Source: a virus
IMG/VR virus record: IMGVR_UViG_3300046006_005870
Coordinates: 1-40,959 of that record
DNA length: 40,959 bases
Direction: 5' to 3' (one strand)
The position numbers and the translations under genes were made by a program. The notes under the pieces are model-generated. The model made no database searches. It had not been told where the DNA came from and worked only from the letters and a program-made list of their open reading frames with translations. Below are positions 22,422-34,786 of the stretch, in pieces (within the stretch, counting starts at the first letter, position 1; the number at the start of each line of letters is the position of its first letter).

Positions 22422-23393
22422 TCAGGCCCACTGAGTCGTGATGAGGTAGCCCTCATTCACATCCGTGACCTTCTCCGTGCTGTTCTGACGCACGCGGACA
22501 ATGTCCGAGCGGTTGGTTTCATCACGGTAGCTTTCAGCCACATACAGGCCGGAAGCATCTTCCGTCCAGACGATCGTGCGGCCGATGCCGCCTTCGCTGA
22601 ACTCACCCGACTTGAGGTTGGCCAGCAGCACCGTGCTGGTGCCCCAGATCGCGCTCAGGGAAAGGGTGCCGCCCTTTTTGGCTGAGTTGCGGCTGCGGGT
22701 GCCGAGCAGGATTTCCTTGACCTCAAGCGCATCCGCCAGTTCAGCCAGATTGAGGCGCTTGTTGCCCACATCCGCATGGTTGCCGAACACGTAGGAAAGC
22801 AGTTTCGGGGAGCGGCGCAGGCGGTCATAGACCACGTTGCTCATCACCAGAGACATCTCCTCCTGATTCACGCCACGGGCGGTCAGGTATTGCTTGGCTT
22901 CCTGGATGTCACGCGGCAGGTCGATGGTCGCCAGATTGGCTTCCGTGTAGGCCACCACGCTGTTGGCGGCGGTGAAGCCGCTGTTGGCAGCACTCATCAC
23001 CTTGGTTGCCACGCGCTGCTCATAAGCCAGCGCCGTGTTGCGGCGCAGTTTCTGGGCAGAGGAGACTTCCATGTCGAAGAACTTCTTCACCTTGCGGGCA
23101 TCCGTTTCATCGACCGCCTCTTCAAGACCGCGGTCCTCGCAATCAAAGGTGTCCCATTCGTAGCTGCGGTTGATGCGCTTGTAGCCGGTGCCGGGAGCGC
23201 GTTTGGTATCGGTGTCAGCGTCCAGCAGGCCGCCGTTGCCGATGTTGTAGCGCGGGTAGCGCCCGGTGGTTTCGTCGCTGGAGTAAACCCCAAGGACTTT
23301 GTCTGCGATCAGACCTTTGTCTGCTTCGCGGGCCTGCTCAAGCAGGACGCGAATGTCAGAACGTGGGACGGCGGCGGTATTGGAATATGCCAT
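22422..23393 (-). CDS. Major capsid protein
   Basis: This encodes 323 residues. An N-terminal helical arm with Asp-rich turns leads to a core of lambda gpE/HK97-fold type. The helix READKGLIADKVLG, the central helix EQRVATKVMSAANS, the strand around LPRDIQEAKQYLTARG (spine helix) and LVMSNVVYDRLRRSPK follow the usual order. The last 80 residues are beta-rich, as in the A-domain. It follows protease/scaffold and a decoration-like gene and precedes a strong terminator, fitting an abundant shell protein. No GTTGAC box precedes this start; a TACTAAAAT-type AT-rich stretch lies about 10 bases before the ATG. Confidence 0.85.
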   Translation of the reverse strand: MAYSNTAAVPRSDIRVLLEQAREADKGLIADKVLGVYSSDETTGRYPRYNIGNGGLLDADTDTKRAPGTGYKRINRSYEWDTFDCEDRGLEEAVDETDARKVKKFFDMEVSSAQKLRRNTALAYEQRVATKVMSAANSGFTAANSVVAYTEANLATIDLPRDIQEAKQYLTARGVNQEEMSLVMSNVVYDRLRRSPKLLSYVFGNHADVGNKRLNLAELADALEVKEILLGTRSRNSAKKGGTLSLSAIWGTSTVLLANLKSGEFSEGGIGRTIVWTEDASGLYVAESYRDETNRSDIVRVRQNSTEKVTDVNEGYLITTQWA

Positions 23394-24194: not shown

Positions 24195-24941
24195 TTACAG
24201 GGTCGTGATGCCCATCTTCTTCTGATGAGCGGTGTAGTCAGCCGGGTAGGTGGCGATGGCGAACTTCATGGCCTCGGCCTTGGCGGAGAACTCAGAGAGT
24301 ATCGGCTGGCTTTTGCGCAGATCGGCAAACTTGGCTGCCACACGGCGCTCAAAATTGGTGCCGCCTTCGACTTCACCGGACTGGTCGAACATGATCGACT
24401 CGCCGCTGGCGGAGAGCTTCACCTGACGACCGGACTGGTATTCAGCCACCAGTTCACGCAGCGCCACATTCTCAGCCTGCGCTTCTTCAAAGCGGGTGAT
24501 CAGTTCATCCTGCTTGGCCTCGATGGCGGCAAACATGGTCTGTTCAGCCTGCTTCTTCTTGGCCTGCTTCTCACCGAGAAGCATGGCTTCCAGTTTGTTG
24601 CACCGTGCCTCGAAGTAATGGATCGGGTCATTGCGGGAAAGCGCATGGGCCTCGGCAGCTTCGTGCTCGCCTTCGCCTTCGCCCTCACCTTCGCCTTCAC
24701 CTTCACCCTCGCCTTCACCAGCTTCTTCTGCCAGCATCAGACCGCCTTCGCCGTCTTCGACAAGAGTGCCGTTGTCGATGAGTTCCTGGACTTCCTCATC
24801 AGAGAGTTCCGGTTCATCGTCGTTTTGACCGCCAGCTTCAATCGCTTCGATGCGCTGATTGATGCCGTTGATAGCGTTCATGACATCCGCCAAAGTCGGT
24901 TCAGCGGCAGGAGTTGGATTGGATTCAGTGGTTTTAGCCAT
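24195..24941 (-). CDS. Nested scaffold protein (internal start)
   Basis: This is the same frame as the protease gene, starting at its Met195: 248 residues with the charged helices and acidic Gly-Glu repeat. The start is marked by GGAG 6 bases before the ATG and by a GTTGAC box 15 bases upstream. This is the same arrangement as lambda gpC with Nu3 nested in it. The acidic repeat would sit inside the scaffold and be lost on cleavage. Confidence 0.7.
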   Translation of the reverse strand: MAKTTESNPTPAAEPTLADVMNAINGINQRIEAIEAGGQNDDEPELSDEEVQELIDNGTLVEDGEGGLMLAEEAGEGEGEGEGEGEGEGEGEHEAAEAHALSRNDPIHYFEARCNKLEAMLLGEKQAKKKQAEQTMFAAIEAKQDELITRFEEAQAENVALRELVAEYQSGRQVKLSASGESIMFDQSGEVEGGTNFERRVAAKFADLRKSQPILSEFSAKAEAMKFAIATYPADYTAHQKKMGITTL

Positions 24942-25523
24942 GCCTTTCTCCGGACTGTCAACACCTGCGCTGAACATGCCGCCCGGATTGGCCGCTGGAC
25001 TGGCCACCAGATCGGTGCTCACCAGCTCTGTGCAGCGTGCATGTTTGGTAGTGCCCGGTTTCAGGGTCACCTTGCGCCCGCCTGCCGCCAGTGTGTAATC
25101 CGTCTTGGTCTTTTCATCATGGAAGATGGTCTCCCCATCCGCCGTCTCCGGCTCCCCGCGAAAGGCCACAGACAGGCCCACGCTGTTCGGCATCCGCTCC
25201 GCCATTTCCAGCAGATGTTCCGTGGTCGCATACGTGCGCAGCAGATGCCAGTCACCGCGCACCTTGTCGCCATCGATGCGGAAGTTGGTCAGGAAACCAT
25301 TCACCGCATCCACACCACTGCCGTGATTGGTCTTCACCGGCACCTGGCCCATTTTTTTGGCGCAGAGGTAGATTTGTTTCAGCGTCTTGCCGTCCACCTC
25401 CAGCCCATGACCCTTGGCCGTCAGGCCACCAGTAATCATGCTCACGCCGCTGATCACGGCATTCTCTGCATCCACGGCACCATCGGCACCGAACGTCTCA
25501 AATGTGTATAGGGGTTTGCTCAT
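24195..25523 (-). CDS. Prohead protease fused to scaffold
   Basis: This encodes 442 residues. Residues 1-190 look like a prohead protease of the herpesvirus-assemblin fold: candidate His67 in TNHGSG and Ser118 in PNSVGLSVAF. The protein then continues with a Pro/Ser linker, a helical region and a Gly-Glu repeat (GEGEGEGEGE...), then long charged helices (EQTMFAAIEAKQDELITRF) typical of scaffolds. An internal start inside the gene makes the scaffold alone. It directs shell assembly and is cleaved by the protease. A variant ATTGAC box is 17 bases upstream. Confidence 0.8.
   Translation of the reverse strand: MSKPLYTFETFGADGAVDAENAVISGVSMITGGLTAKGHGLEVDGKTLKQIYLCAKKMGQVPVKTNHGSGVDAVNGFLTNFRIDGDKVRGDWHLLRTYATTEHLLEMAERMPNSVGLSVAFRGEPETADGETIFHDEKTKTDYTLAAGGRKVTLKPGTTKHARCTELVSTDLVASPAANPGGMFSAGVDSPEKGMAKTTESNPTPAAEPTLADVMNAINGINQRIEAIEAGGQNDDEPELSDEEVQELIDNGTLVEDGEGGLMLAEEAGEGEGEGEGEGEGEGEGEHEAAEAHALSRNDPIHYFEARCNKLEAMLLGEKQAKKKQAEQTMFAAIEAKQDELITRFEEAQAENVALRELVAEYQSGRQVKLSASGESIMFDQSGEVEGGTNFERRVAAKFADLRKSQPILSEFSAKAEAMKFAIATYPADYTAHQKKMGITTL
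24667..24719 (-). repeat. Gly-Glu coding hexamer tract
   Basis: Repeats of a 6-bp unit (CCTTCG/CCTTCA type on the plus strand) encode alternating Gly and Glu in the protease/scaffold. The tract is prone to length change in whole hexamers, so the frame is kept. Confidence 0.85.
24957..24962 (-). promoter_or_regulatory. GTTGAC box before nested scaffold start
   Basis: GTTGAC, 15 bases, then the internal ATG at 24941. The box lies in the protease coding region and codes for Val-Asp. Confidence 0.5.
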
Positions 25524-25549: not shown

Positions 25550-26536
25550 TCACGCGCCGCGCCGCATCTCCCGTTGCAGCATCGACCCACGCCCGGAAGC
25601 CTTTTCAGCCCCCCCCTGCATGAAGCCCTTGCCACGTCCGCCACTGGACTTGTTCACCAGCGCCGCACGCAGATCCCGCAGCTTGCCACCCGCCACCTTG
25701 AGTCCCTTGCTGGCCAGCTTGCGCCCGCCGCCTGTGCCACCCAGCAGCCCCGCACCCGCCAGCGCCGCCGCACCTGCGCCCACCGCCAGCGACTTCTTGC
25801 CATACGCCTGCCGCATCGTCACCGGATCTGCCCCACCCGTCGCCGCCCCCACAAACTGCCCGTCACCATCACGGGTGCGGTCGGAGAATTTGATCACCTT
25901 GCCATCTGGCTGAACCCTCCACAAGCCACGACCCTTCTTGTCCACCTTTGGCTCATGGCTTGTTTTGCGGATGTTGTTATTCTTCCTCAACAGCCGATCA
26001 ATCCCAGCACCTGCCATCGGAATTAGATTGCTTAAATGATCATCAGCAGGCGTGGGAAGAAAAAGCGGGATGCTGGCATAAGTAGCCGCATTGCGTTTCA
26101 AATGCGCCAGCACACCACGCTCCTTCTGCACTCCATCATGAGTGTTCATGTAACCACCCGCAAACTCCGTCACCTCACCCCGCGCATTCAGCATCAGGGT
26201 TTTGGCAGCGCCGGGTTTGCCAGCCTTGGCCAGCACCTTGGCCCCGGCCTGCGGGTCAAAGCTGCGGATCTCGACATCCATGCCATACTTCTTTTTGCCA
26301 TCACGCTGGTTCATGTTGCGGCCGGTGATTTTGTATTCCACCAGCGCCGTGCCCGTCTCCGGCAGCGCCATGACATCATCCTTCACCCGATTCACATACA
26401 GATTCGGATACTGAATCTTCGGTGCTTTGGAATCACTCAGACTCGGCATGCAGCCATAACTGTCGTCATAAGTGTAACCAAGATCCAGTTTTTCAAACTG
26501 AGTCAGCAGCCGTGAGAGTCGGGAGAAGGAGGTCAT
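25550..26536 (-). CDS. Membrane-type virion protein, related to neighbours
   Basis: This encodes 328 residues. The frame is open to 26728, but the ATG at 26536 follows a pyrimidine leader and the upstream gene ends at 26577, so 26536 is chosen. It begins with the LTQFEKLD motif also seen in the giant protein. Later come KFSDRTRDGDGQF and a Gly/Ala-rich span (LAVGAGAAALAGAGLLGG), then a basic tail. The motif-then-Gly-span order recurs in two adjacent proteins. Likely a head-internal or ejected protein; no enzyme motif seen. Confidence 0.6.
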   Translation of the reverse strand: MTSFSRLSRLLTQFEKLDLGYTYDDSYGCMPSLSDSKAPKIQYPNLYVNRVKDDVMALPETGTALVEYKITGRNMNQRDGKKKYGMDVEIRSFDPQAGAKVLAKAGKPGAAKTLMLNARGEVTEFAGGYMNTHDGVQKERGVLAHLKRNAATYASIPLFLPTPADDHLSNLIPMAGAGIDRLLRKNNNIRKTSHEPKVDKKGRGLWRVQPDGKVIKFSDRTRDGDGQFVGAATGGADPVTMRQAYGKKSLAVGAGAAALAGAGLLGGTGGGRKLASKGLKVAGGKLRDLRAALVNKSSGGRGKGFMQGGAEKASGRGSMLQREMRRGA

Positions 26537-26576: not shown

Positions 26577-27386
26577 TTACTTGAGCCTGCCCGCGACTTT
26601 ACGCAGACCGAGCGCACCCTTGATTTTGCGCAGGGCTGGCTCGGCATGATAAGATGCTTGAGCCATGCCTTTTTTAAGACCGCGCTTTCCTGCCTGCATG
26701 CCACTGGTGACGGCATCGCCGTAAGCATTGGCGCGGGTCGGAGTGAATCCGTATTTCTTCTTGGCCGCGCTCATGATGGCGTGGTCACCTACAAAAGCAC
26801 CCCCACCGACAGCTATTGCCCCGGCACCGATCCGCGCAGCTTTTTTCTTGCGCTCATCGTCACCCACCAAATGCTTCATAGTGGAACCAAACTCCACCAG
26901 CACGTCATCCAACTGCGCTTCGAGTTCCACCAAACGCTGCGCCGCACCAAAGCGCACGCCTTTCAGGGCTGCCAGAGCCGCCTTACCCACACCCATGCCG
27001 GGTTTCTTCCAACCCAGGCCCGCAGTGCCAGCACGCGCACCCTGATAAGCACCCTTGACGTTCTTGCCGTAGGTCGCCGCACGGGCCGCACCGGCAGCGC
27101 CAGCCGTCTTCACCTTGTCCAGCGCCTCATTGCCCACGGCTTTGTAGGCATCACCGGCGCGCACCGGACCAGCGGCAGCACCGCGTTGCATCACGCTGCG
27201 ATGTCCGGCATAACCGGCACCACCCAGCACGCCCGCAGCGACAATCCCACCACCGACACGGCGGTTGCGCTTTTCACGCTGCTGCTGCTGCCATGGGTAT
27301 TCCCCGGTGGCATTGGCTGCCAGGGCAAATTGGTTGAGTGCCCCGTTGAGACGGGAGGAGAGTTGAATGAGTTGGCGTGTTTTCAT
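26577..27386 (-). CDS. Gly/Ala-rich membrane-type virion protein
   Basis: This encodes 269 residues. NQFALAANATGEY near residue 18 is another copy of the F-x motif, followed by basic QQQQREKRNRR and a glycine-zipper span (VGGGIVAAGVLGGAGYAG). A second span (IGAGAIAVGGGAFVG) lies near 190, and a basic helical C-terminus follows. The sequence is rich in small residues with clusters of Lys/Arg, like ejected internal proteins. Same gene group as the giant upstream protein; function unknown. Confidence 0.6.
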   Translation of the reverse strand: MKTRQLIQLSSRLNGALNQFALAANATGEYPWQQQQREKRNRRVGGGIVAAGVLGGAGYAGHRSVMQRGAAAGPVRAGDAYKAVGNEALDKVKTAGAAGAARAATYGKNVKGAYQGARAGTAGLGWKKPGMGVGKAALAALKGVRFGAAQRLVELEAQLDDVLVEFGSTMKHLVGDDERKKKAARIGAGAIAVGGGAFVGDHAIMSAAKKKYGFTPTRANAYGDAVTSGMQAGKRGLKKGMAQASYHAEPALRKIKGALGLRKVAGRLK

Positions 27387-27424: not shown

Positions 27425-30400
27425 TTAAGCCGCTGCCCCAGCGGAGGGTTTGGGCATGAATCGAATGTTGGACGGTGGCGACCCACCGGCGGCCGCCCGC
27501 TTCTTGTGCACGGCTTGCAGCGCCTTGCGGATCTTGGCTCGCTCAGCCTGCACCGCCCGCTCTGTGGCAGTGACCAGTTTCTTGCCGCCCAGCTTGTGCA
27601 TGACCGCTGCACTCAGGCCCGTGCCGGCCAGTGCCGCACCCGCCCAGAGCTTGCGTTCGTTGTCGATCTTTTCATACCACTCCTTCGGCCTGCGATCACG
27701 GCCCTGACTGCCCGGTGCAAACACCCGCGCCGAACGGCCCCGCGCATCCCGCAGATCCCAGCCAGCATCCAGTGGATCACTGAACCGGGTGACCTTGCCC
27801 AAATACGCCGCCAGATTCAAAGATGGCGTGTCGCCTCCCTTGACTGGCCTGCTGGCCTTGGGTTTGACCACCTTGAGCTTGGAGCCCTTGATGCGTGCCT
27901 TCGCCTCTTTGGCATCCTTGGCCAGCTTGGCTGCCAGAGCTTTGGCCTCTTCCTCGATCATGGCGCTGGTGCTCTGCGGTTTGCCCGTCATCGCCGCAGC
28001 ATGGGCTGTGCCCTTGTCTGGAAAGGTGTCTGGAAAGACTTTGTTCACGGCATCCTTGCCCTTGATTTTCAGTCCCTCAACTCCGCGCTGCAGTTTCGGG
28101 AACTTGCGGTAAGCCAAACCAGTGGCCAGAATGGCCCCGCCTGCCACAAGCTGATTGCGCTTGCGCTGGAACCATGGCTTTTCCCACTCACGCTTTTTCT
28201 CGCGACCCCAGGCATCCTTCTCACGCTTGTCGCCGCGCAGATGCTTGACTGCATCATGCGCCAGACCGCCGCCGCGCTCCGACACCATGCGCACAGTATT
28301 GGCCTTGCGCATGATGCTGCGCCCAATCTGCCCCGTGGTGGCTTCCAGCGGATTGTCCTCGATGTCTTTCATGCTGGCATGGATCTTGCTCACGGTCTCC
28401 GGCGCGAACTTGCGTGCGCCTGATTCATGATCCGCCAACTGCCGCCGCAGGCGATGGTATTCGTTCACATCCTTTTTGCGGTAGCCCTTGGATTTGCCGA
28501 TGAAACTGTCCCAGGAGTCCATGTAGCGGCTGCTGTGCAGGTCAGCCTGCTGCTCACTGCTGCCAAACTTACGCAGCACACGCAGATCCCCCATCTCCTG
28601 CTGCTTGCGGCCAATCATGCCACCCGCTGCACCGCCGATGGCTGGCATGCCGTTTTCCACGGCATACGCACCAGCACGCGCCCGACGCTTGGCCCACTTG
28701 CCCAGCGGCTTTTCAGGATTCCGTTTTAACAGCGTCCGGTAAAGCGGTGCCCGCACCTTGCCGCCCAGCATCGCCCCCGCCACCGTGCCCACCGCGGCCC
28801 CGATGATATTGAACTGCGTCAGCTTCATCTGGCCTTCCGGCCCGACTTGCAGCAGCCGGATTTTCTTGCCGATGCGCACCACCTTCTGCGCCCAGCCTGG
28901 TGCTGGCGCTGCCGCAGCACTGCGCTTCCCGCGCCGGAATGCCCCGCGCACCTTGGCCTGATAGCGTTTCGGCTCACGCAGCGGTTGTGTCAGATCCCCA
29001 TACACCCGCCCGACATCCGCACTGATGCGGGTGGCATGGCGCACGTTCGTCGTCGTTGCCTTCATGTCCTTCACGGTCGGTGCCACCGCCTTCACCACCT
29101 TGTGTCCCTGATGCACCAGATAACCCGCCCCAGCCGTCGCCGCCGCCGCTCCACCGAGCACGGCGATGTCACGCGCACGGCTCAGCTTGTCACGCTTCGG
29201 TGCGGTTTCAAACTGCGTCAGCTTCCGCCCATCCGCCCACAGCTTGATCTGGCCGATCTTCTTGGCCCCGACCGCAATCTTGCGACCCGCCTTGGCAATG
29301 CCGCGATTCATCGACGCCGCTGGCTGCACGGCATCGTTCACCGTGCCCAGGGTTTCTTTGGTGCTAATCGCCGCCTTGCGCCAGCTCTTGCCAATCTTGC
29401 CCGCCTGACGCAGCCCGACATTCGCCCGCGCCAGGGTGCGGCGCACGGCAGGCGTCAGCTCCGTCACCGCCTTCTGCCCCTGCTTATAAAGCTTGTGCCC
29501 GCCGTAGCCCGCGCCACCGATCAAGCCCAGCACGCCCACATCCTTCGCCAGCCCCAGCTTGTCCCGCAGATCCCGCGTGCGATTGCGTGAGGGGTCAGCG
29601 AACGCCGTCAGGCTCAAACGCGCCGACATCTCTTTGAGCTTTTCATTCCGCGCCTTGCGTTCCTTCCATGCCTTCTTCGCATAGACACCGCTGCCAGCCA
29701 GCATCGCCGCGCCACCAACTGCCAAGCCCGCACCGGCGGCAGCACGCTTGGGGTGCAGTTTGATATACTGTTTCCATTCCTTCATCGACATCCCCTTGTA
29801 ATGCTTTGAGCCAACGCGGTAGGATTCCGGTGCTTTGTTCTTCATCACTTTGGTGCGGTCTTTCAGCATGAAGGAAGCAACTGGATCAAGCAGTTGATCA
29901 ACCTCTGGATTCGGCATCAAATTTTTCTGCAATCCTTTCCGCCACAGCGGCATGCGATACTTCAAAACGGTGCCTTTGTGCCGATGCGTGAGCGGCATGA
30001 GGTCACGTCCTAGTTTTTTACGCACCGCCGTAACCACAGCCTTTCCCATCCCTTTGCCGCTATCCTTGGCGTCCATGATCTTTTTGACATCTTCGGCGCT
30101 CAGTGGGCGTCCGCCTTCCTTTAGCCAGGCACTTTGAGCGGCATACTGGCCCGCTCCATTCATGCCTTTTTCATGGGACAAGAAAGCACCCTTGCGCGTC
30201 TTTTTGAGCATGTCGGCCTTGTTGCCGCCAAACGGATTAAACGACTCCTTCCCACCGCCCATGATCACATCCGAAATTCCGTGAGTCTTCGCACGGTCCG
30301 CTGATTTCAGCCCTGTTTTCTGGATATTCTTCGCGGAGGCTTTGTCCGTGCCATGATACAAAGTTGTGCGGCCAGTTAGTCTGTCCCGCCCCTCACGCAC

Positions 30401-31255
30401 CAGCTTTTGACCAACCAAGCCACCGCCGATCACCAGTTGGGCATCCCTCACCGTTTTCGATTTTGCTTCAGCATTTTGGTGCTGGCCTTCAAGTTTTTTA
30501 GCCTCGTCAGGCGTAACGCTGCCGATCAAAGCTTTCCACTTAGCCTTCTTCGGATCTGAGTTGGTGGCCCGTGTGCCTCGATCTGGGTTTGAGCGCATGG
30601 ACAGAAACCCAAACTCCGTGGTCTTCCCTGTGCTCAACCGTGCCGGGGTCAGATCCAGCACGTTCAGGCTGCTGGTGATCGCGCCGCGCTCGGCTTTCGC
30701 CAAAAAGTGATGCCCGTCCACAATGCGGTCGTTCATGAGCAGGATGTATTTGCTGCCGCCCTTGATCTTGCCCATCACCTCTTCCCGTGCCCGACTGGCG
30801 CGCAGGGTGCCCAATGCTTTGCGTGCCGACTTCAAATTTTCGGCATCCGCTTTGCCGATCAGTTCCGCCACCGTCATACCGTAATGCACCAGCGGCGTGC
30901 CTGCCTTGGCATCGACAAAGCGCGTCACTTCGCCCTGCACTTCTTTGGGCAGGGATTTGAAGACCATGTCTTCAATGAAGGCGCTGAATTTCCAGTCACC
31001 ACCCGTGGCCACACTGTCCACGGTCTCACTGCGCTTGCCTTTGTTGGTGGCTCCCAGCACCGCGCCAGCCACTCCGCCTGCCCGTGCGCCATGCACGGTC
31101 ATGGTGCGCCGCCGTGTGCGCAGCAGACGCTGCAATGCCTTGGGAATTTTATGCTTCCCATCCAGCACCATGCTGCCGAGATAAGCCCCGGCCGTGCCGG
31201 TGATGAGTGCATTGCGCGCGCGGTCGCCGCCGGAAATTTTGGAGTTGTCAGCCAT
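27425..31255 (-). CDS. Giant virion-type protein with ParB-like and ADP-ribosyltransferase-like regions
   Basis: This encodes 1276 residues. The ATG at 31255 has a GTTGAC box exactly 14 bases upstream; a GTG at 31264 is the alternative. Residues about 118-205 resemble the ParB/sulfiredoxin fold, with NDRIVDGHHFLAK at 175-187. Residues 297-372 resemble ADP-ribosyltransferases: TTLYHGTDKASA, then GAFLSHEKGMNGAGQYA; a catalytic Glu cannot be placed with certainty. From about 500 to the end, basic stretches alternate with Gly/Ala-rich hydrophobic spans (near 504-526, 571-586, 696-716 and 814-832, and two near the C-terminus). It lies between portal and scaffold genes, so packaging into the head and ejection are plausible. 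Confidence 0.68.
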   Translation of the reverse strand: MADNSKISGGDRARNALITGTAGAYLGSMVLDGKHKIPKALQRLLRTRRRTMTVHGARAGGVAGAVLGATNKGKRSETVDSVATGGDWKFSAFIEDMVFKSLPKEVQGEVTRFVDAKAGTPLVHYGMTVAELIGKADAENLKSARKALGTLRASRAREEVMGKIKGGSKYILLMNDRIVDGHHFLAKAERGAITSSLNVLDLTPARLSTGKTTEFGFLSMRSNPDRGTRATNSDPKKAKWKALIGSVTPDEAKKLEGQHQNAEAKSKTVRDAQLVIGGGLVGQKLVREGRDRLTGRTTLYHGTDKASAKNIQKTGLKSADRAKTHGISDVIMGGGKESFNPFGGNKADMLKKTRKGAFLSHEKGMNGAGQYAAQSAWLKEGGRPLSAEDVKKIMDAKDSGKGMGKAVVTAVRKKLGRDLMPLTHRHKGTVLKYRMPLWRKGLQKNLMPNPEVDQLLDPVASFMLKDRTKVMKNKAPESYRVGSKHYKGMSMKEWKQYIKLHPKRAAAGAGLAVGGAAMLAGSGVYAKKAWKERKARNEKLKEMSARLSLTAFADPSRNRTRDLRDKLGLAKDVGVLGLIGGAGYGGHKLYKQGQKAVTELTPAVRRTLARANVGLRQAGKIGKSWRKAAISTKETLGTVNDAVQPAASMNRGIAKAGRKIAVGAKKIGQIKLWADGRKLTQFETAPKRDKLSRARDIAVLGGAAAATAGAGYLVHQGHKVVKAVAPTVKDMKATTTNVRHATRISADVGRVYGDLTQPLREPKRYQAKVRGAFRRGKRSAAAAPAPGWAQKVVRIGKKIRLLQVGPEGQMKLTQFNIIGAAVGTVAGAMLGGKVRAPLYRTLLKRNPEKPLGKWAKRRARAGAYAVENGMPAIGGAAGGMIGRKQQEMGDLRVLRKFGSSEQQADLHSSRYMDSWDSFIGKSKGYRKKDVNEYHRLRRQLADHESGARKFAPETVSKIHASMKDIEDNPLEATTGQIGRSIMRKANTVRMVSERGGGLAHDAVKHLRGDKREKDAWGREKKREWEKPWFQRKRNQLVAGGAILATGLAYRKFPKLQRGVEGLKIKGKDAVNKVFPDTFPDKGTAHAAAMTGKPQSTSAMIEEEAKALAAKLAKDAKEAKARIKGSKLKVVKPKASRPVKGGDTPSLNLAAYLGKVTRFSDPLDAGWDLRDARGRSARVFAPGSQGRDRRPKEWYEKIDNERKLWAGAALAGTGLSAAVMHKLGGKKLVTATERAVQAERAKIRKALQAVHKKRAAAGGSPPSNIRFMPKPSAGAAA

Positions 31256-31269
31256 GTTGGCCACTCCAC

Positions 31270-31507: not shown

Positions 31508-31852
31508 TCAGAAGGGAATGTCGTCGCCCTCACTCGGTGCCGCCGTATTCATCGGCCCCGTCTCTGCCGGTGTCGCTGGTTTGGCCCGGCTCGATGCCCC
31601 ACGGCCATTGTCGATGCCGAACAATTTCACCCGCGCCGAGCTGGTGCCCTTTTCCATCTGGCCCCGTGCCAGTGTGGCCAGCACGGGATTGAGCGCATCC
31701 ACATGCAGACGCACCTCCGTCCATTCATTGCCTGCATTGTCCTGAAACACCATGAGCACGCCCAGCTCACGGTATTCAATGGTCGCCTTCTGAGCGCCCT
31801 GTTTCATGTAACTGCCCACGGGCAGACAAAGTCGATGTGTGATCTCAGCCAT
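31508..31852 (-). CDS. Small protein with SSB-like acidic tail
   Basis: This encodes 114 residues. The last residues EGDDIPF match the acidic tip of single-stranded-DNA-binding proteins, where Asp-Asp-Ile-Pro-Phe docks host repair proteins. The body has strands (KATIEYRELGVLMVF, TEVRLHVDALN) that might form an OB-like barrel, then a Ser/Ala/Pro-rich linker of about 30 residues before the tip, as SSB has. The usual SSB N-terminal signature is not seen. It is encoded among head genes, not with replication genes, which is unexpected. Confidence 0.55.
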   Translation of the reverse strand: MAEITHRLCLPVGSYMKQGAQKATIEYRELGVLMVFQDNAGNEWTEVRLHVDALNPVLATLARGQMEKGTSSARVKLFGIDNGRGASSRAKPATPAETGPMNTAAPSEGDDIPF

Positions 31853-31878: not shown

Positions 31879-33600
31879 TTATTGGTTCGGGATGATTTGC
31901 TCTGCTTCGGCCAAGTCCATGCCGTAGCTCGCCACCAGCACCGTCACTGCCTGTTCGCGAGTCAACTCGCCCGTGTTCAGTTTTTTCATGATGTCCAGCA
32001 GACCCTTGACCGCGTCCTTGCCATGCGCTGCCGCCAGACCGGCCGGTGGGGCAGGGGAGTCCATCGGCATCTGCTCCGGTGCATTTTCATCCAGCACAGG
32101 CTGCTCTGCGTCCGGCTCTCCCCGTGTCTGCATGGCTGCCAGCAGTTGTGTCGCATTCGGGAACCGCTCGCTTTGCAGTTCGATCGGCACGCCGCTCTCC
32201 GCCGCCACTTCCTGCCGGATGGTCATTTCACGGGCCTGTGATTTGCACAGCTCTTCAAAGTCACCGCCCAGCTTGCCCTCGACCAGATCACTCAGGCTGA
32301 TGGCCCCGACTTCCAGCAACTGCAAATCTGCCGACGTATCATGGCCCACATCACCCGTGATCTCCGCGCCAAAGTTCCACTTGCCCGCACCGCGTTTCGG
32401 ATGCTGGCGGATGTCTTTGTTCGCCACCCCGCGCCGCAGCACTCGCACCACCACTTCTTCCAGCAGCTTCCGCCGCATCAGTTCACGGAAATGCTTCAAG
32501 GTGCGCATGACCTGGTTCACCTCGATGCGTGCCGTGACCCCACCCAGCATGGCCAGATTCCAGATGAAGCCAAACGGCATGTCCAGCTTCACCGAGAACT
32601 CACGGATCTTGTTCTCATAATACGCCATGTAGGCACCGTTTGGCCGGTTTGGCGGATTCTGGAAAACAATGTCATCCCCCTCCGGCAACCGCTGGATGAT
32701 GCCGCTCTTCATCTCCATCTTGTTCACGCCATCCGCTCCCTTGCCATCCCAGGCCGAGCCGGACTTGCTGCTGTAGGGATTGTTGGATTTCAGGAACCCG
32801 GCAAAGCTGGCGGCAAACTTGGCGGCATCCATCTCCGATTGATCCAGCTCCTTGAGGTCTCGCGGCACTGTCAGCGCCCCGCCCGCCCAGCAGATGCCCC
32901 GTGTCTGGTCAATCCGCTCCGCATCCATCAGCAGCACAAAATCAGACGGCACCACCTCCTGATCAAAGTCATACTGGTTGTTCCGGTTCCGCTTGTAAAT
33001 CTTGTATCCGGTGACCTCGCCGTGCTCACCCAGCTTCACGCCGCGCACTTCATTGTTGCCCTGATTGCCCGCCTGATTCGGATCACCAATGCGGTCGGCC
33101 TCGATCCCCTGCAGTTTCAGTTCACCGCCTTCATCGACAAAATGCACGCCCACATCCCCATCCCGCAGCATGGAGCGCAGGTAAAGCTGGCACAGCTTGG
33201 TGAAATCATGCTGGCCCTTGTAATCGCAATTCTTCTGCCAGTTCTCAAAGTAGGCCTCATATTCGGCATCCAGCGCACTGTCACCCGTGCGGCTCTGCCA
33301 CTTGATCGTGCCCAGCGAGTAGCGCGTCGTCCGGCTCAGCACCCCGTTCCACAGCGGTGAATTGCGCTCCAGATCCCGGCTCTCCCACATCAGCTTCACC
33401 ACATCCAGCGACATGCGCGGATTCTCCGGTGATCCATTCCGCCCTGGCGTGCCCCCGCTGGTGCCACGCCTGCCATCCCCGCTCACCCCGTCGTATCCAA
33501 ATTGAGTCAGCATCTGCCGCGCATGACCGCGCTCCAGCGCCATGGTCGGTGACACATACGAAATGACTTTTTCTAACAGGTTGAGTGTTGGCTTTCCCAT
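31879..33600 (-). CDS. Portal protein, lambda gpB type
   Basis: This encodes 573 residues. The sequence fits lambda-type portals: LRSMLRDGDVGVHFVDEGG with EADRIGDP (wing and clip region), a long helical stem, and the EVNQVMRTLKHFRELMRRKLLEEVV tract. Length is normal for the family (about 500-600). It forms the dodecameric DNA channel at the head vertex. GTTGAC lies exactly 14 bases before the ATG, inside the overlapping upstream gene, where it encodes Val-Asp. The C-terminal 50 residues are Pro/Ala-rich. Confidence 0.85.
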   Translation of the reverse strand: MGKPTLNLLEKVISYVSPTMALERGHARQMLTQFGYDGVSGDGRRGTSGGTPGRNGSPENPRMSLDVVKLMWESRDLERNSPLWNGVLSRTTRYSLGTIKWQSRTGDSALDAEYEAYFENWQKNCDYKGQHDFTKLCQLYLRSMLRDGDVGVHFVDEGGELKLQGIEADRIGDPNQAGNQGNNEVRGVKLGEHGEVTGYKIYKRNRNNQYDFDQEVVPSDFVLLMDAERIDQTRGICWAGGALTVPRDLKELDQSEMDAAKFAASFAGFLKSNNPYSSKSGSAWDGKGADGVNKMEMKSGIIQRLPEGDDIVFQNPPNRPNGAYMAYYENKIREFSVKLDMPFGFIWNLAMLGGVTARIEVNQVMRTLKHFRELMRRKLLEEVVVRVLRRGVANKDIRQHPKRGAGKWNFGAEITGDVGHDTSADLQLLEVGAISLSDLVEGKLGGDFEELCKSQAREMTIRQEVAAESGVPIELQSERFPNATQLLAAMQTRGEPDAEQPVLDENAPEQMPMDSPAPPAGLAAAHGKDAVKGLLDIMKKLNTGELTREQAVTVLVASYGMDLAEAEQIIPNQ

Positions 33601-34128: not shown

Positions 34129-34710
34129 TCACGGTTTCGGCATGCCCTTGAACCCGCAGGCTTCCCGCATGGCCTGCATGGGAAAGGCCGGGCCTGGATC
34201 ATTCTTGCGTGCTGGTGCCACATCTTCATGGCCGATCCCGTCATCCAGATTGTAGCGTTTCACCAGCACCTTCGACAGCGCCTCACAGGCCGCAAGCTGC
34301 GCTGGCGGATACGCCTCCCACTCCTGCACCGGCCCGCCATTGCGATGCCGCGCACGCACCAGCGGCAGTTTCGTCCAGCGTTTGGCCAGCGATGTCTCAT
34401 CCCCCGCATTCGCCAGCTCGATCCCGATGGCGCAACTGTTCAGCCCGCTGAATCCCTGCCACTTGCTCACTCCGGCATGACCGCAGGTTTTGTTGAAAGG
34501 ACGGCATTGATAGATCGTGCCATCCCGATCAATCACCACATGAGCGCATGCCCCATTGGCCGCCGTGCTGTTCCAGTAGTTGATGCTTGAGACCGCCGTG
34601 GCTCCACTCGTGAAATGCCAGACCAGAAAGCGCCGCACATTCATGGCCGAGCCCCCGACAACCGGACGCCGCACCGCTGTATCCAACCAATGATCTGCTG
34701 TGATATTCAT
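34129..34710 (-). CDS. N-acetylmuramoyl-L-alanine amidase endolysin
   Basis: This encodes 193 residues; a TTG at 34716 is the longer start. It is an amidase_2-family zinc enzyme: candidate ligands are His32 in LVWHFTSG and His161 in GHEDVAPARKNDPG, with Asp171, the ligand pattern of AmpD and T7 lysozyme. Lys169 lies two residues before Asp171. It cuts the amide between muramic acid and L-Ala. No signal peptide or cell-wall-binding domain is present, so it depends on a holin. It is the first gene of the late block, an unusual place for an endolysin. Confidence 0.87.
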   Translation of the reverse strand: MNITADHWLDTAVRRPVVGGSAMNVRRFLVWHFTSGATAVSSINYWNSTAANGACAHVVIDRDGTIYQCRPFNKTCGHAGVSKWQGFSGLNSCAIGIELANAGDETSLAKRWTKLPLVRARHRNGGPVQEWEAYPPAQLAACEALSKVLVKRYNLDDGIGHEDVAPARKNDPGPAFPMQAMREACGFKGMPKP

Positions 34711-34786
34711 CAGCAAACTTGGCCTGTCACCAATCCCGCTTGCAGTTCACCTCTTCATCCTTCATCCTTCCACCTTCATCCTTTCC

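What the first reader, a model, noticed from the sequence alone, without database searches (positions are those of the whole stretch)
27425..31255. Giant late-block protein with ParB-like and ADP-ribosyltransferase-like parts
A 1276-residue product lies between portal and scaffold genes. Seen: a ParB/sulfiredoxin-like stretch (NDRIVDGHHFLAK), an ART-like stretch (LYHGTDKASA, then GAFLSHEKGMNGAGQYA) and a run of basic blocks with Gly/Ala hydrophobic spans. Known: polyvalent proteins of phages and conjugative elements join ART, ParB-like and other effector domains and enter the host with DNA. Inferred: this could be a head-packaged, co-injected effector that modifies a host target at the start of infection. 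A catalytic Glu was not located with certainty.
Basis: partly seen in the sequence, partly recalled or inferred. Interest (0 to 1): 0.85.

Follow-up and report, generated by a model that had tools for sequence, protein, structure and literature searches.

The report
Phage head protein with swappable cargo
An uncultured phage family carries, between its portal and capsid genes, a giant protein built from modules joined by a short repeated motif, with an exchangeable slot that holds a different domain in nearly every relative (ADP-ribosyltransferase-like here); this suggests, but does not prove, a set of effectors made as one chain, packaged in the head, cut apart and injected with the DNA.

Summary
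The ORF is real: 1276 aa (ATG; 1279 from an upstream GTG), minus strand, between portal and protease-scaffold genes, conserved in several related contigs. The ADP-ribosyltransferase (ART) reading has limited support: its N-terminal part is closest to KptA/Tpt1 and outscores every decoy, but only over 38 residues; no catalytic acid is fixed and structure prediction failed. The ParB reading is a motif resemblance only: no profile matches, and the family's pocket arginine is Phe in all relatives.

The main finding is the architecture. The chassis is conserved, but the ART stretch sits in a cargo slot: relatives carry nothing, DUF6321 plus a membrane-like module, another membrane-like module, or an LRAT-like domain there. 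Distant relatives with the same C-terminal chassis and gene order carry an ATP-DNA-ligase domain. Modules end in [LIV][TNS]xF (LTQF). Cassettes are bracketed by it; the codons vary, so the peptide is conserved. The motif also occurs near the N-termini of both neighbouring small proteins and the portal, and in the scaffold part of the protease gene.

Best model, not shown: a head-internal polyprotein cut at these motifs by the maturation protease, delivering exchangeable effectors with the DNA. It is a polyvalent-protein-like variant with no relative in named phages.

The parts
27425..31255 (-). Giant modular protein (1276 aa from ATG; GTG at 31264 would give 1279 aa; residue numbers in this report use the 1279-aa frame)
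   Evidence: intact ORF conserved in related contigs
30977..31255 (-). Module 1 (residues 4-96), basic with a Gly-rich span, ending in FSAF; slot 1 lies at its end in relatives
30611..30976 (-). Conserved module 2 (residues 97-218), the 'ParB-like' stretch with DGHHFLAKAERG (183-194), ending in TTEF
   Evidence: 77-95% identical in relatives; no profile support for ParB
29600..30610 (-). Cargo slot 2 as filled here: ART-like domain plus a Gly/Ala-rich membrane-like span (509-527), ending in LTAF (F555)
   Evidence: empty in L023, different content in L005, L002, L007
30347..30361 (-). LYHGT motif (H304), the ART/KptA first-strand motif
30140..30190 (-). GAFLSHEKGMNGAGQYA (Y374), possible second ART motif
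   Evidence: sequence; inference only
29825..29827 (-). E480 (APESYRVGS), one candidate for the acidic third ART residue
   Evidence: inference only; not tested
29210..29599 (-). Chassis module 4 (556-685; NRTRDLRDKLGLAKDVG...), ending in LTQF
28811..29209 (-). Chassis module 5 (686-818; similar by eye to module 4), ending in LTQF; L005 has an extra cassette here
27782..28810 (-). Chassis module 6 (819-1161), with GREKKREWEKPWF shared with distant relatives, ending in VTRF
27425..27781 (-). C-terminal chassis module (1162-1279; DPLDAGWDLRDARGRSARVFAPGS...RRPKEWYEK), the most widely shared part
26577..27386 (-). Small basic protein 1 (269 aa) with short N-terminal leader ending LNQF
25550..26533 (-). 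Small basic protein 2 (about 327 aa, start as in relatives) with leader ending LLTQF and a second VTEF
24195..25523 (-). Head maturation protease fused to scaffold; scaffold part carries ITRF and LSEF
31879..33600 (-). Portal protein (lambda family), with LTQF at residues 31-34
22422..23393 (-). Major capsid protein (phrog_1005), without the motif

Best explanation
The protein is a head-internal polyprotein with exchangeable cargo. Shown from sequence: a conserved basic, Gly/Ala-rich chassis; modules separated by a short hydrophobic-x-x-Phe motif (LTQF type); and cassettes inserted, lost or swapped at these motifs, so that N extra cassettes come with N extra motif copies. Inferred: during head assembly the giant, the two small proteins and the protease-scaffold gather in the prohead; the maturation protease cuts at or next to the LTxF motifs, shedding leaders and scaffold and splitting the giant; the fragments stay with the DNA, and at infection the Gly/Ala-rich segments help passage through the host membrane while the cargo acts in the new host. 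In this phage the cargo is an ART-like domain, which probably modifies a host protein or nucleic acid; in distant relatives it is an ATP-dependent DNA ligase.
For: Slot comparison: between TPARLSTG and NRTRDLRDK, L023 has 13 residues with one motif, the window has ART plus a membrane-like span (TTEF...LTAF), L005 another module (TTEF...LHQF), L002 two modules (TTEF...LTEF...KTEF), L007 an LRAT-like module (LTQF...LHLF); L005 slot 4 (LTQF...FSEF) and the L007 DUF6321 cassette (LTQF...LTQF) behave alike. L033/L034 carry a ~150-165 aa module that L035 lacks, with related F-x-T-type sequence on both sides. Motif enrichment: [LIVM][TNS]xF 8 seen vs 0.9 expected in the window's three proteins (highest of 500 shuffles 5), 4 vs 9.4 in other window ORFs; scaffold parts 18 vs 6.3 for a looser pattern. 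Nine LTQF copies use six codon spellings. The scaffold-protease has a conserved NH...GLS pattern and resembles head maturation proteases (phrog_976 E = 0.0012 for the L035 ortholog; hhalign 80%, E = 1.4e-5; score 27 vs at most 20 in 100 shuffles). DNA ligase in the distant clade: 2.8e-7 to a solved ligase over nearly the whole domain. DUF6321: 1e-11 and 3e-13. Precedents: T4 gp21 cuts scaffold and internal proteins after L/I-x-E, and Alt, an ART, is packaged and injected (PMC9026906); P1 DarA is cut by its head protease and injected (PMC12810830).
Against: No virion proteomics; packaging, cleavage and injection are not shown. The motif is short, was defined on these data, and is not confined to junctions (VTRF at F116 lies inside module 2). 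Automatically called homology breakpoints cluster near motifs only moderately (26 of 138 vs 15 expected, P = 0.004, not independent). The motif is degenerate in the ligase clade. Structure predictions failed (pLDDT 33 and 41). The protease assignment is remote (HK97 gp4 gives no match).
Confidence: 0.5

Rival explanations
1. The LTxF motif is a docking or capsid-targeting motif rather than a cleavage site. Many copies bind the scaffold or capsid, so the whole uncut protein is loaded into the head and injected or retained.
For: Leaders of the small proteins look like amphipathic helices ending in the motif (MKTRQLIQLSSRLNGALNQF, MTSFSRLSRLLTQF); T4 internal proteins are targeted by 10-19 residue leaders (PMC9026906).
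Against: Placement at cassette borders and within the scaffold part fits processing at least as well; a pure docking motif need not sit at every module border.
Confidence: 0.2
2. The giant is mainly a DNA-ejection or membrane-channel protein. Its Gly/Ala-rich spans form a conduit through the host envelope, and the enzyme-like insertions are accessory.
For: Net charge +0.11 per residue, 24% Gly+Ala and several membrane-like spans; weak glycine-zipper hits in relatives.
Against: Does not explain the ligase, DUF6321 and LRAT-like cassettes or the motif-bounded exchange. It can be true together with the best explanation.
Confidence: 0.15
3. A late, non-virion protein acting in the producing cell (host takeover, superinfection exclusion or lysis), whose cassettes turn over because of conflict with the host.
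For: No virion data exist; late-block position alone does not prove packaging; enzyme-like cassettes occur in conflict proteins generally (PMC5512222).
Against: Motif shared with portal, scaffold and small head-block proteins and conserved neighbourhood in distant relatives.
Confidence: 0.12
4. The ART resemblance is local and the cassette has another fold or is inactive; the modular architecture is unaffected.
For: Support spans only 38 residues; no model over its cut-off; ART-PolyVal gives no match; AlphaFold2 failed.
Against: Best hits to that stretch in three libraries are KptA/Tpt1 and the score beats all decoys.
Confidence: 0.35

Closest known systems
Polyvalent proteins of phages and conjugative elements (Iyer et al. 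2017, PMC5512222)
   Same: Large multidomain proteins near virion genes combining ART, ParB-like and other domains, proposed to enter the host with DNA; architecture varies strongly between orthologs.
   Different: Neither hallmark domain tested here (ART-PolyVal, ddrB-ParB) is found by profile; modules are joined by a short motif suited to a separate head protease, whereas for DdrB the paper proposes self-processing by a fused metallopeptidase domain; strongly basic with membrane-like spans.
Phage T4 Alt and internal proteins IPI-III (PMC9026906)
   Same: Internal head proteins including an ART, cut by the prohead protease at a short hydrophobic-x-Glu motif, injected with DNA; cargo differs among related phages.
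   Different: Separate proteins with a single leader each; here many modules in one chain with internal motifs, a motif ending in Phe, and no sequence relation found (no phage record matches).
Phage P1 Dar proteins (DarA, Hdf, DdrB; PMC12810830)
   Same: Head-internal, injected, DarA processed by the head protease; DdrB has a ParB-like domain.
   Different: No detectable similarity to the DdrB ParB domain.
KptA/Tpt1 RNA 2'-phosphotransferase
   Same: The segment with LYHGT and the following helix (to GL) aligns.
   Different: Only 38 residues align; the N-terminal lobe is absent and the RxxVHLS region is not clearly conserved.

Membership tests
ADP-ribosyltransferase superfamily | First-strand H-G-T motif with following helix | tested here: met
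   LYHGTDKASAKNIQKTGL; KptA hits in three libraries and hhalign score 33 vs decoy maximum 24
ADP-ribosyltransferase superfamily | Second motif (Y or S) and third acidic residue | tested here: inconclusive
   Y374 and E480 are candidates by eye only; no homologue of the cassette except an identical contig
ADP-ribosyltransferase superfamily | ART fold | tested here: inconclusive
   AlphaFold2 pLDDT 33 and 41; no usable model
ART-PolyVal (PF18760) | Match to the family model | tested here: not met
   No match in the window record; the control set also lacked a positive, so this is weak
ParB/Srx superfamily | Profile match to ParB_N or ddrB-ParB | tested here: not met
   PF02195 no match; PF18763 no match at E <= 10 in relatives while P1 DdrB scores 6e-42; no Pfam family on the isolated domain
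ParB/Srx superfamily | Conserved pocket arginine | tested here: not met
   All relatives read DGHHF where I would expect DGHHR; which residue is equivalent rests on the motif alone
Polyvalent proteins | Several effector domains in one chain, beside virion genes | tested here: met
   Portal-protease neighbourhood; ART-like, DUF6321, LRAT-like and ligase domains across relatives
Polyvalent proteins | Delivery into the host with the DNA | not testable with these tools
   Needs virion proteomics and infection experiments
Head-protease-processed internal head proteins (T4 IP/Alt type) | Recurrent short motif in internal proteins and scaffold | tested here: met
   Enrichment in giant, small proteins and scaffold, not in other ORFs
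Head-protease-processed internal head proteins (T4 IP/Alt type) | Cleavage at that motif by the cognate protease | not testable with these tools
   Needs co-expression or virion mass spectrometry

The most novel reading that the evidence does not exclude
A phage makes its injected effectors as a single polyprotein with interchangeable cassettes, each bracketed by recognition sites of the head maturation protease, so that cargo can be swapped by recombination without losing packaging or release; cargo includes an ART in one clade and a DNA ligase in another.
Probability: 0.4. Interest if true: 0.85.

Novelty: new variant of a known kind. Interest (0 to 1): 0.66.

Why it matters
If true, it gives a simple rule for finding phage effectors by sequence (read what lies between the motifs), extends the T4 single-leader system to a polyprotein with several cargo slots, and predicts that some tailed phages bring a DNA ligase and other enzymes into the cell inside the capsid. 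It also shows a natural scheme for loading proteins into capsids.

Tried and rejected
Structure prediction of residues 92-560 with five sequences and of the ART core alone failed (pLDDT 33 and 41), so no fold search was run. ART homologues were sought by peptide patterns and a degenerate DNA pattern; the only new hit (L038) is a primase-like ORF in which YHGTDKA is a chance match. tblastn of the giant, ParB-like and ART segments against named phages (and of ART against plasmids) found nothing, even at E <= 10 for the segments. Genome collections gave no prophage relative by the C-terminal chassis or the capsid protein, so the host is unknown. A DNA-level repeat as the source of the motif was rejected because synonymous codons vary. 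HK97 gp4 as protease relative gave no signal. PADLOC gave no defence match.

Full report
Observation. The window is an IMG/VR virus record of 40,959 bases. The ORF is intact and lies on the minus strand from 31255 (ATG, 1276 aa) or 31264 (GTG, 1279 aa) to 27425; relative L002 starts at the ATG equivalent. Upstream lie a 114-aa ORF and a lambda-family portal; downstream two small basic proteins, a protease-scaffold protein, a 239-aa protein and the major capsid protein (phrog_1005). The quoted peptide strings are present.

Relatives. Scans of viral contigs found a 100% identical copy (L001, 63 kb contig), L005 (73% identical), L002/L003/L004 (69%), L007 (45%), a near copy of L007 split over the ends of its contig (L008/L024), a partial relative L023, and a distant clade L033, L034 and L035 that shares the C-terminal chassis. 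The gene order portal - giant - small 1 - small 2 - protease-scaffold - capsid is kept where contigs allow. No named phage matches, and no bacterial genome contig.

ART-like part. Residues 298-329 hit KptA/Tpt1 in Pfam, PHROGs and NCBIfam, below curated cut-offs where these are given. hhalign of the segment against a KptA profile scores 33-34 with E about 1e-4 for the single comparison; 100 shuffles reach at most 24.2 and 118 natural tiles at most 21.6. The alignment covers 38 residues only. H304 is the likely first motif residue; Y374 and E480 are candidates by eye. Two AlphaFold2 jobs gave no usable model. I call the segment probably ART-like.

ParB-like part. Residues 97-218 are the best conserved part of the N-terminal half (77-95% identical), but neither PF02195, PF18763 nor any Pfam model on the isolated domain matches, and hhalign against the P1 DdrB domain gives no signal. 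The motif reads DGHHF where I would expect an arginine from ParB/Srx relatives. The resemblance is therefore a lead only.

Cargo slots. Residues 219-555 of the window are not conserved. Between TPARLSTG and NRTRDLRDK, L023 has only 13 residues including one VTEF; the window has the ART-like domain and a membrane-like span; L005 a different Gly/Ala-rich module; L002 a DUF6321 domain (3e-13) and a second module; L007 a module with an LRAT-like GNNCEHHARD stretch (Pfam LRAT E = 0.05). Each module ends in an x-x-F motif, so N modules come with N+1 motifs. L005 has an extra cassette between LTQF and FSEF, and L007 has DUF6321 elsewhere in the chain, between two LTQF copies. In the distant clade L033/L034 carry a ~150-165 aa module that L035 lacks, with related F-x-TPA-x-R-like sequence on both sides. 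The N-terminus of that clade is an ATP-dependent DNA-ligase domain with the KLDG, LEGE, EGVVV and KxKP motifs and an OB-like part (best solved structure 2.8e-7 over positions 6-219; DNA_ligase_OB_2 about 3e-5, below its cut-off).

The motif. [LIVM][TNS]xF occurs 8 times in the window's giant and two small proteins against 0.9 expected, with at most 5 in 500 shuffles; 25 other window ORFs have 4 against 9.4. The pattern was chosen on these data, so the figures overstate the case somewhat. It also appears in the portal N-terminal region (LTQF, residue 34) and a looser form is enriched in the scaffold part of the protease gene (18 vs 6.3). Nine LTQF copies use six codon spellings, so the conservation is of the peptide, not of a DNA repeat. 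An automatic breakpoint test gave 26 of 138 within 12 residues of a motif against 15 expected, P = 0.004 without independence; many of those breakpoints come from partial alignments of low-complexity spans, and the pairwise cases are shown. Not every copy is at a junction (F116).

Mechanism. Shown: conserved chassis, exchangeable cassettes, recurrent peptide motif at most cassette borders and in scaffold and small proteins. Inferred: the motif is a maturation-protease site, the chain is cut in the prohead, and the pieces are injected. The neighbouring protein resembles head maturation proteases remotely. T4 gp21 cuts after L/I-x-E in scaffold and internal proteins, and Alt is a packaged, injected ART (PMC9026906); P1 DarA is cut by its head protease (PMC12810830). 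L-T-E/Q-F is close to L/I-x-E, so the cut could be before or after the Phe. Docking without cleavage, a mainly channel-forming role, and a non-virion role remain open.

Comparison and novelty. It works like polyvalent proteins (PMC5512222) and T4 internal proteins, but matches no tested hallmark domain of the former and is arranged differently from the latter. I rate it a new variant of a known kind.

Noticed in passing
window 31508-31852 (-): A 114-aa ORF between portal and giant ends in EGDDIPF, like the C-terminal tip of single-strand DNA-binding proteins; no Pfam support. It may be an SSB made with the head proteins.
   Followed up: partly
L034:6197-6883, L035:8057-8749, L033:1679-2365: ATP-dependent DNA-ligase domain at the N-terminus of the giant in the distant clade, a candidate virion-borne ligase.
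   Followed up: yes
L002 giant residues 285-357 and L007 giant residues 1613-1685: DUF6321 domain (Pfam PF19846) at different places in the giant; PHROGs hits to the same stretch lie at or near the C-termini of several phage families of unknown function.
   Followed up: partly
L034 giant linkers (GQRSAVSGKAEMTD, GQRSAVSGQRVKNF); window upstream of 26533 in the frame of small protein 2 (HPPSFILPPSSL): Linker peptides that look like translated dispersed repeats I recall from Verrucomicrobia-type genomes; a possible host hint, from memory only.
   Followed up: no
L053 (5 kb contig): More distant contig with protease and partial capsid gene but no giant directly upstream of the protease, so the giant is not universal in this capsid lineage.
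   Followed up: partly
window 34129-34716 (-): Amidase/endolysin (phrog_1794, 3e-22) just upstream of the portal.
   Followed up: no
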